Below, one piece after another: positions 1,558-39,179 of a stretch of DNA of 64,000 nucleotides. Each line of letters opens with the position of its first letter. Position 1 is the first letter of the stretch. A program made the position numbers and the translations under genes. The DNA comes from Aquificaceae bacterium (lineage in GTDB: Bacteria > Aquificota > Aquificia > Aquificales > Aquificaceae): assembly GCA_027014155.1 (NCBI GenBank), contig JALWEG010000042.1:1-64000 (forward strand), in the 5' to 3' direction. The notes under the pieces are model-generated. The model was not told the DNA's origin, did no database searches, and saw only the letters and a program-made list of their open reading frames with translations.

Positions 1558-2031
1558 TTATATACACCTCATACAGTTTATGTCCCATTCTTCAATGTAA
1601 TCTACCATAGCCTTAAAGGCCTCTTCCCCGTGAAGTAGGTCTTTGAGGTCCCTCTCCAAATCCGCCGGCTTGAGCTTAACTATCCAGGCCTCTCCGTAAG
1701 GGTCTATGTTTATGAAGTTGGGGTCTTCGGCTACCTTGGGGTTGACCTCAAGTATCTCACCCTCCACCAGTGCCGGGACGGGGCCTGCCCACTTGCCGCT
1801 CTCTAAGGTGGCCACAGGCTTTCCCTTCTTCACGCGGGCACCTTCAGGTTTAACCCTTATATGTAGCAGTCTGCCTGCCCTTGTCTGCCCCACGTCCGTC
1901 AGGCCCAATGTGACGCTGCCGTCATCGTTGACCCTCACCCACACCTGACTCTCTATGTCGTAATAGAGGTCAGGGGGAATCACACACCCTCTATGCTCCT
2001 TTATGTTTCCCATATTCCCCTGCTTTTCCAT
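1558..2031 (-). CDS. GcvH-like lipoyl carrier protein with C-terminal CxxC
   Basis: A 157-residue biotinyl/lipoyl-fold protein. The lipoylation hairpin is centred on LESGKW with Lys80 as the probable lipoyl site, whereas canonical GcvH has an ESVK-type motif. No glycine decarboxylase genes are adjacent. Aquificales carry several GcvH paralogues, some tied to sulfur oxidation (LbpA of the sHdr pathway), and this could be one. The C-terminus ends with CMRC (C153, C156), an unusual addition. It is the first gene of the leftward group; no Shine-Dalgarno is seen and a TATAAT lies about 10 nt upstream of the ATG, suggesting leaderless translation. Confidence 0.75.
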   Translation of the reverse strand: MEKQGNMGNIKEHRGCVIPPDLYYDIESQVWVRVNDDGSVTLGLTDVGQTRAGRLLHIRVKPEGARVKKGKPVATLESGKWAGPVPALVEGEILEVNPKVAEDPNFINIDPYGEAWIVKLKPADLERDLKDLLHGEEAFKAMVDYIEEWDINCMRCI

Positions 2032-2057
2032 AATGGAATATATTATAATGTAAGTAA
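2032..2057. promoter_or_regulatory. Overlapping divergent -10 elements, probably leaderless
   Basis: Only 26 bp separate two divergent start codons. The plus strand has TATAAT at 2044-2049, 8 nt before the ATG at 2058. The minus strand has TATAAT over 2042-2047, 10 nt before the ATG at 2031. Both lie in a palindromic ATATTATAAT core. Neither gene has a ribosome-binding site, so both transcripts would begin at or very near the start codon. No good -35 is seen. Confidence 0.5.
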
Positions 2058-2483
2058 ATGTTTACAGAAGCGGTTTTATTGCTCCATCTCTTGCTGGCGT
2101 CCTTCTGGGTGGGCGGCATGCTCTTTCTTTCCATAATACTGGCACCCTTCGTCAGGAGGTTGCCCATAAAAGACCAGGCCTTTCAAGAGGTGGGCAGGAG
2201 GTTCAGCTTCTACGGAACCTTCATAACCCTGACCCTGCTACTGCTCACAGGGTTGGGGAACGTCTTTCTAATTCACGGGGGAAACTTCTCAAGGAGCGTT
2301 TGGGAAAAGTTGGGACTGTTTGCAGTTATAGTGGTAGTGTCTCTGGTTCACGACCTTTGGGCGGGCAAAAGAGCCGTAGAAAGCGACTCTATGAAGATGG
2401 TCGCAAGAACCTTGGGAATTATCAACCTTATTTTGGGAATAATGGCCTTCTACCTGGGGATAAGGATAAGATTGGGTTTCTAA
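2058..2483 (+). CDS. CopD-like four-helix membrane protein
   Basis: A 141-residue integral membrane protein with four predicted helices. The first helix has the LHLLLASFWVGGMLFLS pattern of the CopD/DUF-type domain, with a conserved His, and a second conserved His lies in VSLVHDLWAG. Family members are linked to copper tolerance or act as b-type-heme-like membrane proteins. It is the first gene of the rightward group with the 387-residue membrane protein and the cupin. A second CopD-like protein is encoded at 3963-4367 on the other strand. Confidence 0.7.
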   Translation: MFTEAVLLLHLLLASFWVGGMLFLSIILAPFVRRLPIKDQAFQEVGRRFSFYGTFITLTLLLLTGLGNVFLIHGGNFSRSVWEKLGLFAVIVVVSLVHDLWAGKRAVESDSMKMVARTLGIINLILGIMAFYLGIRIRLGF

Positions 2484-2499
2484 AGATGAGGTATAAACT

Positions 2500-3663
2500 A
2501 TGATTTACGTCTCTAAGATAACGCCTTCCTTCTTCCTGCTTGGAATGGTGAACCTTATCTTCTCGCTTCTCTTTATGGCACTTCCGGGTTTTACCACCAC
2601 CTTCTTCATAACGGCAGTATTCGGTTTTATAGGCAGCGTGATAATGGGAGCCATGTATCAGATAGTTCCCAACTCTCAGAACAGAAAGCTCTCCTTAGAA
2701 CCGCTCTCTTACCTGGTATTTGTGATTCTGATAGTGTCCCTTTCCCTATTCTTCGTAAGAGAGTTTCTACTGGGCTCGCTGAACTACTTCCTATCCGTAG
2801 CTCTATTCGCCTTTCACATAATCCTGAACGTCAAAAACTGGATGCCTCCTACGGTTAAGTTCTTAGGTTTGTCGGTGGTATCCCTCTTCCTGTCCTCTGT
2901 TTTTCTACTCCTGAGCTTGTTGGGGCATCTTCCGATTCAGTTGGCGGTTCACACCTTTACCTTGGGGACTATGCTGAGCGCCGTTTACGGTGTTGAGATA
3001 GCGTGGGTCCCCATGCTGATGATGGAGGCAATAAACGTAAAGAAGCTCAGCAGGCTCTTTTACCTGAAGCTCATATCAACGCCCCTGATACTTGCAGGCT
3101 TTTACCTGATGAACTACCGCCTCATAGCCGCAGCCTCTATCTTAGAGCTTGGGGTTGCGGCTTACTTCTTACACCTCTTCTATGAGATGTTTTATAAAAG
3201 AAGGATGTCAACACCACCGCCTGCGGCGGTAAAGGTATTTATATCCGCCCTAATACTTTTGCCCGTAGGCCTCGTGGTGGGCTTTCTGATGGCTTCCTCT
3301 CCTCAATTGGTACCCAAGCTGCTTTACGTTCACATATTCCTCCTGGTGTACGGCTTTACGGCTCTGACCATATTCGGTGGCATATTCCATCTCTTGCCCC
3401 GTATAGTCTGGAACTGGAAGCTGAAGGACGTACAGAAGGCTCCCCCCATAAACCAATTGGTGGACGAAAAGGGCATATCCCCTTTCCTCTTTTACTTTTT
3501 CCTGCTTCTGACCGCTTCCCTGATGCTTTCCACCGTGGAAGAGCTGAGATTTCTCTCCCCCCTGCCCTATCTGGGTGCGGTGTTTCTGTTCGCTAAGATA
3601 ACCTTCTGGAGCATCTACAAAAAACTCATGGAGGTAAGAGATGGCACAGGTGAGCAGGCTTGA
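2500..3663 (+). CDS. Polytopic membrane protein, NnrS / CcoN-like fold
   Basis: A 387-residue protein with about 11-12 hydrophobic helices. Several intramembrane His residues (H106, H143, H151 in VHTFTLGTML, H278 in YVHIF, H297 in GGIFHLLP) recall NnrS and the subunit-I-like heme-copper oxidase relatives, which bind heme or copper. Function could be NO or metal stress handling, or a stand-alone oxidase-like protein; the sequence alone does not decide. It follows the CopD-like gene by 16 bp, and the cupin gene starts inside its last codons, so the three genes are one transcription unit. Confidence 0.6.
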   Translation: MIYVSKITPSFFLLGMVNLIFSLLFMALPGFTTTFFITAVFGFIGSVIMGAMYQIVPNSQNRKLSLEPLSYLVFVILIVSLSLFFVREFLLGSLNYFLSVALFAFHIILNVKNWMPPTVKFLGLSVVSLFLSSVFLLLSLLGHLPIQLAVHTFTLGTMLSAVYGVEIAWVPMLMMEAINVKKLSRLFYLKLISTPLILAGFYLMNYRLIAAASILELGVAAYFLHLFYEMFYKRRMSTPPPAAVKVFISALILLPVGLVVGFLMASSPQLVPKLLYVHIFLLVYGFTALTIFGGIFHLLPRIVWNWKLKDVQKAPPINQLVDEKGISPFLFYFFLLLTASLMLSTVEELRFLSPLPYLGAVFLFAKITFWSIYKKLMEVRDGTGEQA

Positions 3664-5982: not shown

Positions 5983-7293
5983 TCATACTAATTGTAAATC
6001 TTTGCTGAGCCACCCTTTCAGCGCATTTAGCGCCCTCTCCGCCATTATTTGCTTCCTCTTCTTTTTATCCCTCACTTTGAACTCTAAGGGAGGTAGCAGT
6101 CCGAACACGGGGTTCATGGGTTGCAGCTCTCCCTCCTTGGAGGTTATGTACCTTACCAAAGAGCCCAGCATCGTCTCCGGCGGTGGGACTACAAGCTCTT
6201 CACCCTTTGCCAGCCGGGCGGCGTTCATTCCGGCGAGTATTCCCGTTGCCGCCGAGGCGGCGTATCCCTCAACGCCCGTGATTTGTCCAGCAAAGAATAC
6301 CTTTTCCATTCTTCTCATGTTCAGGAAGGGGGTCAGGACGCGGTTGGATTGAATGAAGGTGTTTCTGTGCATAGAGCCCAGCCGGACGAAGGTAGCATTT
6401 CTTAGGCATGGTATAAGTCTGAAGACCCTCTTCTGCTCCGGGTACGTTAGCTTCGTCTGAAAGCCCACCAGGGACAGGAGCGTGCCCTCTTGGTTTTCTC
6501 TTCTTAGCTGGACTACCGCAAAGGGTTGCTTTCCGGTGGAAGGGTCTCTAAGGCCTACGGGTTTCATGGGCCCGAACAGGAGCGTCTTGAAGCCCCTGCG
6601 CGCCATCTCCTCTATGGGAAGGCAGCCCTCGAAGTGCACCGCCCTCTCAAAGTCTTTGGGTTCTACCTTTTGAGCTTTGAGCAGTTCCTCGTAAAAGAGC
6701 CTATACTCTTCTTCACTTAAGACGCAGTTAAAGTAGTCGTCTCCGCCCTTGCCGTACCTTGATGCCCAAAAGCCCTTTGAGAAGTCAACGGATTCGGCCT
6801 CAACTATGGGGGAGATGGCATCGTAGAAGTACAGAGTCTCGTATCCCACCAGCCTTCTTATATCTTCGGTGATGGCTTCCGAACTCAGAGGACCCGTGGC
6901 GACCACCACTATCCTGTCCTTGGGAATCTCTCTCAGCTCCTCTCTGACAACCTCTACGTTGGGTTCCTGGAGGAGCTTCTGGGTTATGTATTGGCTGAAC
7001 TTCTCTCTGTCCACGGCCAAGGCCCCTCCGGCCGGTACCCGAAAGAGTTGTGCAGCCTCAAGGGTTATGGAGCCCAGCATTAGCATCTCCGCCTTGAGGA
7101 GTCCGGCACCGGTGGTTATCTCCGTGCTTCCCAAGGTATTGCTGCATACAAGCTCGGAGAGCTTGTCGCTCTTGTGCGCCGGTGTGGTTTTCTTGGGACG
7201 CATCTCGTAAAGGACTACTCTGAGTCCCTCTTTTGCCGCTCTCCAGGCCGCCTCACAACCGGCAAGTCCACCTCCTATTACTACTATTTCCAT
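5983..7293 (-). CDS. trmFO: tRNA (uracil-5-)-methyltransferase TrmFO, folate/FAD-dependent
   Basis: A 436-residue flavoprotein. It has the Rossmann signature IVVIGGGLAGCEAAW at the N-terminus, conserved Cys in SELVCSNTLGS, and GQITGVEGYAASAATG toward the C-terminus, all typical of TrmFO (m5U54 in tRNA with methylene-THF). The ATG at 7293 is chosen because the reading frame upstream of it is CRISPR repeat sequence: the last, degenerate repeat ends 8 bp upstream. The CRISPR array is transcribed toward this gene, so array read-through could drive trmFO expression. Confidence 0.93.
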   Translation of the reverse strand: MEIVVIGGGLAGCEAAWRAAKEGLRVVLYEMRPKKTTPAHKSDKLSELVCSNTLGSTEITTGAGLLKAEMLMLGSITLEAAQLFRVPAGGALAVDREKFSQYITQKLLQEPNVEVVREELREIPKDRIVVVATGPLSSEAITEDIRRLVGYETLYFYDAISPIVEAESVDFSKGFWASRYGKGGDDYFNCVLSEEEYRLFYEELLKAQKVEPKDFERAVHFEGCLPIEEMARRGFKTLLFGPMKPVGLRDPSTGKQPFAVVQLRRENQEGTLLSLVGFQTKLTYPEQKRVFRLIPCLRNATFVRLGSMHRNTFIQSNRVLTPFLNMRRMEKVFFAGQITGVEGYAASAATGILAGMNAARLAKGEELVVPPPETMLGSLVRYITSKEGELQPMNPVFGLLPPLEFKVRDKKKRKQIMAERALNALKGWLSKDLQLV

Positions 7294-7301
7294 CTTTTCC
7301 C

Positions 7302-8200
7302 GTTTCAATCCTTTATAGGTGTCCAATGGACATTGTAAATTTATCCCAACCTCCCGAGCGGACAAGTTGTTTCAATCCCTTATAGGCACCCAATAAACCG
7401 TAGAAGGGGGCACTATCATGCCACCGAGCAGGTCGTTTCAATCCCTTATAGGCACCCAATAAACCTTACCTCAAGGTATGCCATTACTTGCGGAGAGTTT
7501 TGTTTCAATCCCTTATAGGCACCCAATAAACGCCATAGACGGAGACTCCAGCGTTCACCTTATATCCGGTTTCAATCCCTTATAGGCACCCAATAAACTT
7601 TTGTGAGGCTGTAGATGCTGGGATATTGTGAGGCCGGTTTCAATCCCTTATAGGCACCCAATAAACACATAATCGCTCTCCCTTTTCTGTAATTGTAGCC
7701 GTTTCAATCCCTTATAGGCACCCAATAAACGAGCTCGCAGCAGAGCTTGTTGTAAGCATGTGATAGCGTTTCAATCCCTTATAGGCACCCAATAAACCCA
7801 ACTACCTCGTATCTCACGCTCACTACTGCCTGCACCGTTTCAATCCCTTATAGGCACCCAATAAACGTCCGAGCGTTTCAATTGATATATCCGTCTCTTT
7901 CCTGTTTCAATCCCTTATAGGCACCCAATAAACTGGAATTACTGTGTTTTGAGCTTCCGAAATTTTTCCGGTTTCAATCCCTTATAGGCACCCAATAAAC
8001 GGCTCAATTACAAGAGCAGCTCCGAACCGAAGCAGCGTTTCAATCCCTTATAGGCACCCAATAAACTTAAGAAGCAAGAAGAGCTTACGCAGTCGGTTGT
8101 AGGTTTCAATCCCTTATAGGCACCCAATAAACTGGAATACAAATTATAACAGAAAGAAGAGCGGATATACGTTTCAATCCCTTATAGGCACCCAATAAAC
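7302..8200 (-). CRISPR. CRISPR array, 14 repeats / 13 spacers
   Basis: Fourteen 30-bp repeats (plus strand begins GTTTCAATCC and ends CAATAAAC) start at 7302, 7369, 7435, 7502, 7569, 7637, 7701, 7768, 7837, 7904, 7971, 8037, 8103 and 8171. Thirteen are identical. The first (7302-7331) has several changes near its end, marking the leader-distal side. Spacers are 34-39 bp and all different. Transcription is therefore leftward (minus), giving crRNAs whose repeat ends in ATTGAAAC just before the spacer. That 8-nt end is usual for Cas6-processed type I-B/III repeats, yet the only nuclease gene here is Cas12f/TnpB-like. No spacer was seen to match the window by eye, but this was not exhaustive. Confidence 0.98.
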
Positions 8201-8345
8201 TGCTGGGTAATCACGCGCCTATGAATTGCAAAAGGTTGCTAAGCCTGAATAACTTATAAAACTCATAACATCTCACAAAAACTGTTAGCAAAGAAACTTA
8301 TTTCCTGTCCACCTTCAATCTTGCAAAAATTCCTGCAGATAGACA
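8201..8345 (-). promoter_or_regulatory. CRISPR leader, AT-rich
   Basis: The stretch between the newest repeat (8171-8200) and the candidate tracrRNA is AT-rich and contains no gene. Read on the minus strand it holds a TATAAG (plus 8253-8258) that could serve as a -10 about 50 nt before the first repeat. No consensus -35 is evident. The degenerate distal repeat at the opposite end supports leader placement here. Confidence 0.55.
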
Positions 8346-8349
8346 GAAA

Positions 8350-8521
8350 CGTAGGTGCCTTTAAGGGTGCTCTCCACCTGCCTAAAAATTTAGGCAGGAT
8401 ATGGAGCAGGTGGTTGAAACGCCACCTATCCCAACAGTAGCCACTGTATAACGTGGCTACTGCCGGTCCCTACCTATTATGGCAGGACTTTCTTCATCTC
8501 ATACTTCGTAGCACACCCTAT
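8350..8521 (-). ncRNA. Candidate tracrRNA with anti-repeat, type V
   Basis: The minus strand downstream of the nuclease gene holds, in order: a perfect 10-bp hairpin CAGTAGCCAC...GTGGCTACTG (8435-8462); a stem AGGTGG/CCACCT whose loop shows GTTTCAA (plus 8414-8420); a perfect hairpin CCTGCCTAAA/TTTAGGCAGG (8377-8398); and then CCCTTAAAGGCACC (8354-8367). The last segment matches the reverse complement of the crRNA repeat at 13 of 14 positions. GTTTCAA complements the crRNA 3' repeat end TTGAAAC. Two anti-repeat pieces in the correct antiparallel order, separated by a hairpin, are what Cas12f tracrRNAs show. Ends are not known; transcription may come from the nuclease gene promoter. Confidence 0.7.
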
Positions 8522-10183
8522 TCAGTTGCCAATAAGCCCGGGAGGTTTATATACCTCGTTTAGAAACTTCACCGGGTCTTCAATAAACCTTTTGTAGTTA
8601 TTATAATCGTTTTTCCTCATCTCCTTCAATGCTTTTTTCAAAGAGGTTTTTTCAGGCATACCGAGATACTCGTTTAGCTTCCTCCTTATCAATCCTCTCC
8701 TTATGTTGTTGAGTATATGATTCTTTTCAGGGGTAATGTCTTTATGGTCACCACCAAGGGCTTTTATTTGAGACTTCAAATATCTATTGATTATCTTTTC
8801 TATACCTTTGGTTGCTAGGTTTCTTGCTCCAACGTAATCAGCATGAGCTTTATAGCCGCACGACGGACAGATAAATTTATCTCTTTTGGGCCTTACTATA
8901 TCTTTCAAAAAGCCTATGTATCCGCATTCTGGACATCTCAAAGAGGTGCAGGCAGGATTTATCTTGATGGACTTTACCCCTATCTCTTTAAGCTTGTTTT
9001 CTATATAAGTTTGAAGCTGGGAATAGTTCCATTTAGGAAACATAAGAGAGTTTTTCTTCTCAGGGTCAACCGAAATACTTTCCATTACAACCTTACTCAC
9101 ACCCTCTTTCTCCGCCACCTTTCTGATTATGCTGGCTACAGTTTTATTAAGAGTTTCCATGAAGTTGGCTTCGTAGTTTCTTACCGATTCTAATTCCTTA
9201 ACTACTTGTCTTTTTCTTTTTATCAAAGGTTCTTTTTCCCTTTTATCCTCTCCTTTAAGGAGATTATTTATGTAATGGAGTTCTCTTACAAGTCTTCTTT
9301 TCTTTGTCCATACAGCGTATATTTTCCTTTTCCAGTCAAACTTATCAGACCTCAACCACTGTGGAGAGAACTCGCTATCTTTTGTTGCATCTCCTCTTAC
9401 ATGACTGTCGGAAACTGCAAAGTAAGCAAGACATTCCTGCCCAAGGTCTATCCCCATTACCTTATCGCTTTTTTCTTTTTTGGAAACAGGGACTTTGTAG
9501 CAGAAGATTAGGTAAGGCCCCCTTTTATTACCTCTTTCTTTATAACCAAAACCTGCATAGGCAAGTTCATACTTGCTTTCCTTTATTCTTTCAAGCAGTT
9601 TCAGATAGGAATTTTTGTTAGCTTTTTTTAGCTTAAAGTCTTGCACCCACCTTAAAAGGGCTCCCTTAAATAGGGCTAAGTCTATTATTACCCTCTTTCT
9701 CTTGGGGTTTGAGGTGTATTCAATCTCTATATTCCTGACAACTTTATTCCTTGATACCCTAACTATGGGTAGACTTTTCAAAGCAACCAGCTTTCCTTGG
9801 ATTAGGTTATCTCTTACATCTTTTTGCAGAAAATAGTGAAAAGAAGCCTGGAAAGAATCCCGAGCGAAGTAAATGGTAAGAGTATCTATTTCAAAAAAGG
9901 TCTTTTTCGGCAGTTCCTTATATATGAAAGAGGATAGATTTGACTTTCTCCTGAGTTTGAACTTTTCATCATCGGTAAATGCCACTATGTCCCCGATAGC
10001 CTTAATTAAGGCGGCTCTTGCATACCTGGTGGCTTTGTTAGCTATGTGTCTGAGTTTCGCTTTTGAAAGCTCTTCTATCTTGCCATCATTAAGGATCAAA
10101 TACCATTTCCCGCCGGAGAGCCTAAGAACTTTATCTACAACTCCCTCTCTTTTTTTCTTCTCCATAGGAGAGATTATACCCAT
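8522..10183 (-). CDS. Cas12f/TnpB-superfamily RuvC nuclease (candidate type V effector)
   Basis: A 553-residue protein. RuvC-I is VMGIDLGQE (D246), RuvC-II is VVMESIS (E368), and RuvC-III is AHADYVGARNLA (D449). Between II and III sit the PACTSLRCPECG motif and a four-Cys zinc ribbon (C417, C420, C439, C442). The N-terminal 240 residues are basic and mixed alpha/beta, as in TnpB/Cas12f recognition domains. About 90 residues follow RuvC-III, longer than in most TnpBs. Size fits Cas12f1 (roughly 400-700 aa). It lies directly upstream of the tracrRNA-like segment, leader and array on the same strand, with no TnpA and no flanking IS ends. Codons are AT-richer than the neighbours, suggesting transfer. 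Met7 (10165) is an alternative start: TATAAT lies 7 nt before it. Confidence 0.8.
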   Translation of the reverse strand: MGIISPMEKKKREGVVDKVLRLSGGKWYLILNDGKIEELSKAKLRHIANKATRYARAALIKAIGDIVAFTDDEKFKLRRKSNLSSFIYKELPKKTFFEIDTLTIYFARDSFQASFHYFLQKDVRDNLIQGKLVALKSLPIVRVSRNKVVRNIEIEYTSNPKRKRVIIDLALFKGALLRWVQDFKLKKANKNSYLKLLERIKESKYELAYAGFGYKERGNKRGPYLIFCYKVPVSKKEKSDKVMGIDLGQECLAYFAVSDSHVRGDATKDSEFSPQWLRSDKFDWKRKIYAVWTKKRRLVRELHYINNLLKGEDKREKEPLIKRKRQVVKELESVRNYEANFMETLNKTVASIIRKVAEKEGVSKVVMESISVDPEKKNSLMFPKWNYSQLQTYIENKLKEIGVKSIKINPACTSLRCPECGYIGFLKDIVRPKRDKFICPSCGYKAHADYVGARNLATKGIEKIINRYLKSQIKALGGDHKDITPEKNHILNNIRRGLIRRKLNEYLGMPEKTSLKKALKEMRKNDYNNYKRFIEDPVKFLNEVYKPPGLIGN

Positions 10184-39001: not shown

Positions 39002-39179
39002 TAAATAATGTGTTCTCTATATGCCATGCGAATATGGTGGTAATCCTTGCCTCTCAATCTTTTACTCCAAGTTAACACACACTAACAACGCACCTTTCCG
39101 AACCTCTTTTTGCTCTATTTTTACGCCATTATTTCGCCAATATTACGGAAAATTTCGGAAGCTCAAAACAGCTTCTTTC
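39002..39179. other. Non-coding left end of prophage
   Basis: About 180 bp, AT-rich, no gene. It contains near-repeats CGCCATTATTTCGCCAATATT and a TTCGGAAGC-type end that may be integrase arm sites of attP, but nothing decisive is seen. Confidence 0.35.

What the first reader, a model, noticed from the sequence alone, without database searches (positions are those of the whole stretch)
7302..10183. Stand-alone miniature type V (Cas12f-like) CRISPR locus in a thermophile
Seen: a 553-codon RuvC/zinc-ribbon nuclease, a hairpin-rich gap holding an anti-repeat, an AT-rich leader and a 14-repeat array, all on one strand and contiguous, without cas1, cas2 or transposase. Known: Cas12f effectors are compact, related to TnpB and need a tracrRNA. 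Inference: a complete minimal V-F-like effector locus from a hyperthermophilic lineage, dependent on adaptation genes elsewhere. Repeat type and the long C-terminus set it apart from the V-F systems I can recall.
Basis: partly seen in the sequence, partly recalled or inferred. Interest (0 to 1): 0.93.

Follow-up and report, generated by a model that had tools for sequence, protein, structure and literature searches.

The report
Mini-Cas12f using borrowed type I-B arrays
This hot-spring bacterium carries a tiny Cas12f-type CRISPR cutter with its own helper RNA and memory array, but the array's control sequence and repeats appear to be copied from an unrelated CRISPR system in the same cell, so the small system probably has its memories written by the big one.

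Summary
8522-10183(-) encodes a 553-aa Cas12f-like nuclease with an intact RuvC triad and a zinc ribbon. A four-stem tracrRNA follows (8352-8488), then a leader and a 14-repeat array (7302-8200), all on one strand. The protein belongs to the Cas12f1 side of the family, apart from 16 TnpBs (100/99 support), in a clade found in only 5 of 136 Aquificota genomes. The tracrRNA has the Un1Cas12f1 layout: a stem-3 loop carrying one anti-repeat, stem 4, then a second anti-repeat. In four orthologous loci with different repeats, both anti-repeats change with the array, and each tracrRNA fits its own array best. The new point is the array's origin. Here, leader and repeat belong to the family used by the genome's own type I-B locus (repeats 90% identical). 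In G080 the leader is a near-identical copy of its own, different type I-B leader, and the repeat differs by 1 nt. One clade of Cas12f-tracrRNA modules is therefore attached to two different type I-B array families, which probably supply adaptation in trans. The clade also has a conserved helical C-terminal domain. CnCas12f1 with a type I-like repeat is a partial precedent, so I class this as a new variant of a known kind.

The parts
8522..10183 (-). Cas12f-like effector, 553 aa (RuvC D246/E368/D449; zinc ribbon C417, C420, C439, C442)
   Evidence: ORF; PADLOC Cas12u3 4.7e-58 and Cas12f 3.5e-50; PDB Cas12f1 best; tree; top 19 Foldseek hits all Cas12f
8543..8803 (-). C-terminal helical extension (about residues 461-547), absent from AsCas12f1 and from the G059 relative
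   Evidence: aligned in 4 of 5 orthologs; predicted as helices, mostly at pLDDT 83-92
8466..8488 (-). tracrRNA stem 1 (GTCC...TAATAGG...GGAC)
   Evidence: motif found only in the four orthologous tracrRNAs among the loci held; folds in all four
8431..8465 (-). tracrRNA stem 2
   Evidence: equivalent long hairpin in all four orthologs
8406..8429 (-). tracrRNA stem 3; its 8-nt loop carries anti-repeat GTTTCAA (8414-8420), which pairs with the repeat's 3' end TTGAAAC
   Evidence: 0 mismatches to own repeat in 4 of 4 loci although the loop sequence differs in each; same place as AR:R 1 in Un1Cas12f1 (PMC8053092)
8372..8406 (-). tracrRNA stem 4
   Evidence: long hairpin between the two anti-repeats
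8352..8367 (-). 3' anti-repeat CCCTTAAAGGCACCTA, pairs with repeat positions 7-22
   Evidence: (0 of 200 shuffles reach it)
8298..8355 (-). leader block homologous to the leader of the type I-B array on contig C3 of the same genome (20-nt identical core GATTGAAGGTGGACAGGAAA)
   Evidence: alignment score 59 against a shuffle maximum of 27
8201..8351 (-). leader region between tracrRNA and first repeat
7302..8200 (-). CRISPR array, 14 repeats (GTTTATTGGGTGCCTATAAGGGATTGAAAC), 13 spacers; last copy 7302-7331 degenerate
7934..7970 (-). spacer with a 22-nt exact match to the prophage in this window
   Evidence: (E 4.6e-4 in own genome)
39149..39170 (+). partial protospacer at the end of the SU10-like prophage (about 39-63 kb)

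Best explanation
This is a complete type V-F (Cas12f1-like) interference module: effector, tracrRNA, leader and array. The tracrRNA pairs with crRNA repeats from the adjacent array through two anti-repeats, and the RNP is expected to cleave DNA matching the spacer next to a 5' PAM. The leader and repeats descend from type I-B CRISPR arrays of the host lineage. New spacers are therefore most likely written into this array by the type I-B Cas4-Cas1-Cas2 encoded elsewhere in the genome, while the tracrRNA anti-repeats have been tuned to the local repeat variant. Shown by sequence: protein class, tracrRNA anatomy and covariation, leader and repeat kinship. Inferred: expression, cleavage, PAM, crRNA processing (RNase III, or type I-B Cas6, or both) and adaptation in trans.
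For: Profile and structure searches rank Cas12f first and TnpB far behind. The tree places the five Aquificota proteins as one clade (100/100) on the Cas12f1 side (100/99), away from 16 TnpBs. Four orthologous loci keep the same order of stem 1, stem 2, stem-3 loop anti-repeat and 3' anti-repeat, with different sequences that match their own arrays. This is the layout described for Un1Cas12f1 (PMC8053092). The window's leader and repeat match the C3 type I-B locus. In G080 the leader is a near-identical copy, over more than 190 bp, of its own Cst1-type I-B leader, and the repeat differs at one position. RNase III is encoded. One spacer matches an SU10-like prophage in part.
Against: No transcript data are available. 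Only four loci carry the RNA, and effectively two or three are independent. Only one spacer has a target, and it is partial, so no PAM can be derived. G059 has the protein but no array or tracrRNA on its short contig. G026 has proline at the aligned RuvC-II glutamate position and a degenerate array, so not every copy need be active. The window leader resembles the C3 leader in one block of about 58 nt, not throughout.
Confidence: 0.85

Rival explanations
1. The array is an orphan type I-B array served only by the C3 Cascade, and the nuclease is a TnpB-like gene that happens to lie next to it.
For: Repeat and leader are type I-B-like. Spurious tnpB-array neighbours are known (PMC6452270).
Against: The tracrRNA covaries with its own array in four loci. 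In G080 the loop matches GATAGAAAG of its own array rather than GATATAAAG of the type I array. The protein is not in a TnpB clade. The gene-tracrRNA-array order is kept in four loci across two families.
Confidence: 0.07
2. The array is shared: type I-B Cas6 processes it, and both Cascade and Cas12f use its spacers, so the locus is a second weapon reading one memory. This is compatible with the best explanation and differs from it on who reads the array.
For: The repeat is 90% identical to the C3 repeat. The two anti-repeats meet at about the place where Cas6 would leave an 8-nt handle ATTGAAAC (position from general knowledge of Cas6). In Marinomonas, type III was reported to give redundancy against viral escape from type I (PMC5576922, title and abstract).
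Against: Cas6 cleavage would separate the part bound by the 3' anti-repeat from the handle. The repeat differs from C3 at two tracrRNA-paired positions, which could insulate the systems. Not tested.
Confidence: 0.3
3. A catalytically or functionally degenerate relic: effector and array persist without activity.
For: G026 has a changed RuvC-II motif (VVMPEIHMDP) and a degenerate array. The clade is rare.
Against: In the window, 13 of 14 repeats are identical, the catalytic triad is intact and the tracrRNA pairs with the repeats.
Confidence: 0.08

Closest known systems
Type V-F1 Cas12f1: AsCas12f1, SpCas12f1, OsCas12f1 (V-U3 in part)
   Same: RuvC and zinc-ribbon core; gene, tracrRNA and array, with V-U3 members lacking adaptation proteins (PMC7229846, PMC8548392); best sequence and fold matches
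   Different: Longer (553 against 422-497 aa for the V-U3 proteins tested in PMC7229846) with a conserved helical C-terminal extension; deep separate clade (stem length 1.38); 30-nt type I-B-like repeats and a leader derived from type I-B arrays
CnCas12f1 / Cas14a of Clostridium novyi sensu lato
   Same: Cas14a/Cas12f next to a solitary array, one with a 29-nt repeat (gttttagtttaactatgtgaaatgtaaat, PMC8473940) that is 0.69-0.79 similar to the G080/G098 repeats
   Different: On a PICI in Clostridium; no leader capture or tracrRNA retuning in the passages read; the profile match to CnCas12f1 (8hr5) ends before the C-terminal extension
Un1Cas12f1 (Cas14a1)
   Same: Same tracrRNA order: stem 1, stem 2, stem-3 loop anti-repeat, stem 4, 3' anti-repeat (PMC8053092)
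   Different: Sequence distant (6e-22 to 7e-21 with the profile)
IS200/IS605 TnpB
   Same: Shared RuvC and zinc-ribbon ancestry
   Different: The best solved TnpB (8bf8) scores only 1.2e-4; tree separates 16 TnpBs

Membership tests
Type V-F Cas12f | Compact (about 400-700 aa) effector with C-terminal split RuvC and zinc ribbon | tested here: met
   553 aa; D246, E368, D449 and four cysteines
Type V-F Cas12f | Phylogenetic grouping with Cas12f, not TnpB | tested here: met
   100/99 support against 16 TnpBs; only two partial solved Cas12f1 references in the tree
Type V-F Cas12f | Passing a curated Cas12f family cut-off (an aid to naming, not a biological definition) | tested here: not met
   NCBIfam Cas12f2 scores 72.8 against 450; guided_TnpB 98 against 100. 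No NCBIfam Cas12f1 model was among the hits. PADLOC Cas12u3/Cas12f hits are strong but carry no cut-off
Type V-F Cas12f | Adjacent CRISPR array and tracrRNA between gene and array | tested here: met
   by sequence only:
Type V-F Cas12f | tracrRNA with loop anti-repeat in stem 3 plus 3' anti-repeat | tested here: met
   predicted structure and covariation:
Type V-F Cas12f | RNA-guided dsDNA cleavage with 5' PAM; asymmetric dimer | not testable with these tools
   needs biochemistry
IS200/IS605 TnpB | Groups among TnpBs | tested here: not met
IS200/IS605 TnpB | Transposon ends and omegaRNA at the 3' end | not tested
   the gene's 3' side holds a tracrRNA and array instead; ends not searched formally
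Type I-B array served by resident Cas1-Cas2 | Leader and repeat homologous to a Cas1-adjacent I-B array of the same genome | tested here: met
   window versus C3, and G080 versus 753k
Type I-B array served by resident Cas1-Cas2 | Spacer acquisition by that Cas1-Cas2 | not testable with these tools
   needs an adaptation assay

The most novel reading that the evidence does not exclude
One Cas12f-tracrRNA module has attached itself to two different type I-B array families in different Aquificota lineages. Each time it took up a leader and repeats of that lineage's type I-B arrays and retuned both tracrRNA anti-repeats. It is a portable class 2 interference unit that depends on, and is partly insulated from, the class 1 system whose adaptation machinery it uses.
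Probability: 0.55. Interest if true: 0.8.

Novelty: new variant of a known kind. Interest (0 to 1): 0.68.

Why it matters
How a TnpB-derived nuclease obtains a CRISPR array, and how processing switches from Cas6 to tracrRNA, is described as puzzling in a review of CRISPR evolution (PMC6452270). This clade shows intermediate evidence: an almost unchanged copy of a resident type I-B leader and repeat joined to a Cas12f and tracrRNA in G080, and a more diverged one here. It makes adaptation in trans and tracrRNA retuning directly testable, and offers Cas12f enzymes from a largely thermophilic phylum with an unstudied C-terminal domain.

Tried and rejected
Spacer targets: the phages collection, 136 Aquificota genomes and three exact IMG/VR scans gave nothing beyond the self match. 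Relatives in viral contigs: none. Rfam gave only sub-threshold CRISPR-DR2 matches on the repeats and nothing for the tracrRNA. The short repeat remnants after the anti-repeat in G080/G098 were tested as a built-in guide; no convincing target in the loci held. The TnpB reading was rejected on the tree and the tracrRNA covariation. Literature searches for Aquificota Cas12f, or for Cas12f with type I-B leaders, found no such report, but only open-licence papers are held.

Full report
Observation. The gene is on the minus strand (8522-10183). The array has thirteen identical 30-nt repeats and one degenerate copy at 7302-7331, with spacers of 34-39 nt. The degenerate copy marks the leader-distal end, so the order on one strand is gene, tracrRNA, leader, array. 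The last repeat lies about 9 nt upstream of the trmFO start codon.

Protein. PADLOC gives Cas12u3 at 4.7e-58 and Cas12f at 3.5e-50. A profile of five orthologs finds AsCas12f1 at 1e-41, OsCas12f at 1.6e-39, SpCas12f1 (9i8y) at 3e-37, CnCas12f1 (8hr5) at 1.7e-35 and Un1Cas12f1 at 6e-22 to 7e-21. The best solved TnpB (8bf8) reaches only 1.2e-4 (molecule names). An AlphaFold2 model (mean pLDDT 76.6, pTM 0.53; five-sequence alignment) has Cas12f structures as its first 19 Foldseek matches; TM-scores are low, so I use the ranking and E-values only. In a tree with 16 TnpBs, two solved Cas12f1s (only their printed RuvC-zinc ribbon parts) and four plasmid or phage relatives, the Aquificota proteins form one clade (100/100) within the Cas12f1 side (100/99). 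Curated NCBIfam cut-offs are not passed, as can be expected for a divergent member. Residues about 461-547 form a helical extension, mostly predicted at pLDDT 83-92. It is aligned in four of five orthologs and is missing in G059 and AsCas12f1.

tracrRNA. Window, G026 (68% identical protein), G098 (43%) and G080 (40%) all have the array on the gene's 3' side with a gap of about 310-420 nt. Each gap holds stem 1 (AGTC..TAATRG..GGAC, found in no other held locus), stem 2, a stem 3 whose 8-nt loop complements the repeat's last seven bases, further hairpin sequence (a clear stem 4 in window and G026), and a 3' anti-repeat. The loop is GTTTCAA, GCTTCAA, GTTTATA or CTTTCTA, and the arrays end in TTGAAAC, TTGAAGC, TATAAAT and TAGAAAG. 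The 3' anti-repeat also follows its own repeat. In a cross-test against ten repeats, every tracrRNA fits its own repeat best over the two anti-repeats together, with 0 loop mismatches; the near ties are mostly type I-B repeats of the same kin. Single-locus duplex scores alone are modest for G098 and G080 (1 of 200 shuffles reaches them); the strength lies in the shared anatomy and covariation. The layout is that published for Un1Cas12f1 (PMC8053092).

Origin of the array. Own contig C3 carries a type I-B locus (Cas6, TM1802/Csh1-like Cas8b, Csh2, Cas5h, Cas3, Cas4, Cas1b, Cas2) with repeat GTTTATTAGGTGGCTATAAGCGATTGAAAC, 90% identical to the window repeat. Its leader shares a 58-nt block with the window leader, including 20 identical bases (score 59, shuffle maximum 27). 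The two other Cas1-adjacent arrays of the genome show no such leader similarity. In the complete genome G080 the cas12f leader is a near copy (four substitutions in the last 190 bp) of the leader of its own type I-B locus of another variant (Cst1, Cst2, Cas5t), and the repeats differ at one base. The window-type leader is instead related to G080's second Cas1-bearing locus (788k). So one effector clade is attached to two type I-B array families. In the window the homology begins at the end of the anti-repeat, and in G080 about 27 nt after it, so effector plus tracrRNA behaves as one unit and leader plus array as another. Direction and number of captures are inferred, not shown.

How it works. 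tracrRNA and crRNA form the guide; RNase III is present and Cas6 is available in trans; which one matures the crRNA is open. Adaptation most likely comes from the C3 Cas4-Cas1-Cas2. One spacer (7934-7970) shares 22 exact bases with the end of an SU10-like prophage in the same window (portal 6e-173, capsid 1.2e-106). The rest of the spacer does not match, so this points to related phages as targets rather than to self-cleavage.

Distribution. Only 5 of 136 Aquificota genomes carry the protein, and G026's copy sits on a contig with ParA- and conjugation-like ORFs (by eye), which suggests horizontal movement.

Limits. There are no expression data, no PAM, only four RNA loci, and an incomplete literature library. 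C. novyi Cas14a already shows that Cas12f can sit beside a type I-like repeat (PMC8473940), so the novelty lies in the leader capture, the retuned tracrRNA and the extended clade.

Noticed in passing
window 39149-63306: SU10-like prophage (terminase, portal, adaptor, capsid, RuvC-like resolvase) in the same window as the array; one spacer partly matches its end.
   Followed up: partly
window 7291-7331: The last, degenerate repeat ends about 9 nt upstream of the trmFO start codon, so array transcription runs straight into trmFO, a gene conserved in nearly all relatives searched.
   Followed up: no
L035:9629-9642 and L034 gap (positions 127-161 on the gene strand): In G080 and G098 a partial repeat (13/14 and 12/14 bases; 0 and 2 of 500 shuffles) lies just after the 3' anti-repeat, as if a single-guide RNA were built in; no target of the following bases found.
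   Followed up: partly
L033:3478-5094: G026 ortholog has proline at the aligned RuvC-II glutamate (VVMPEIHMDP) and a short, degenerate array, on a plasmid-like contig: possibly a binding-only or decaying copy.
   Followed up: no
L082:1690-1860 and 1925-3268: Alicyclobacillus phage MMB025 carries a Cas12f1-side nuclease (annotated transposase) next to an annotated three-copy CRISPR.
   Followed up: partly
L037:9298-9660: The C3 type I-B array contains two pairs of duplicated neighbouring spacers.
   Followed up: no
L054:9258-9966: In G080's second Cas1-bearing locus the cas1 gene appears split into two ORFs.
   Followed up: no
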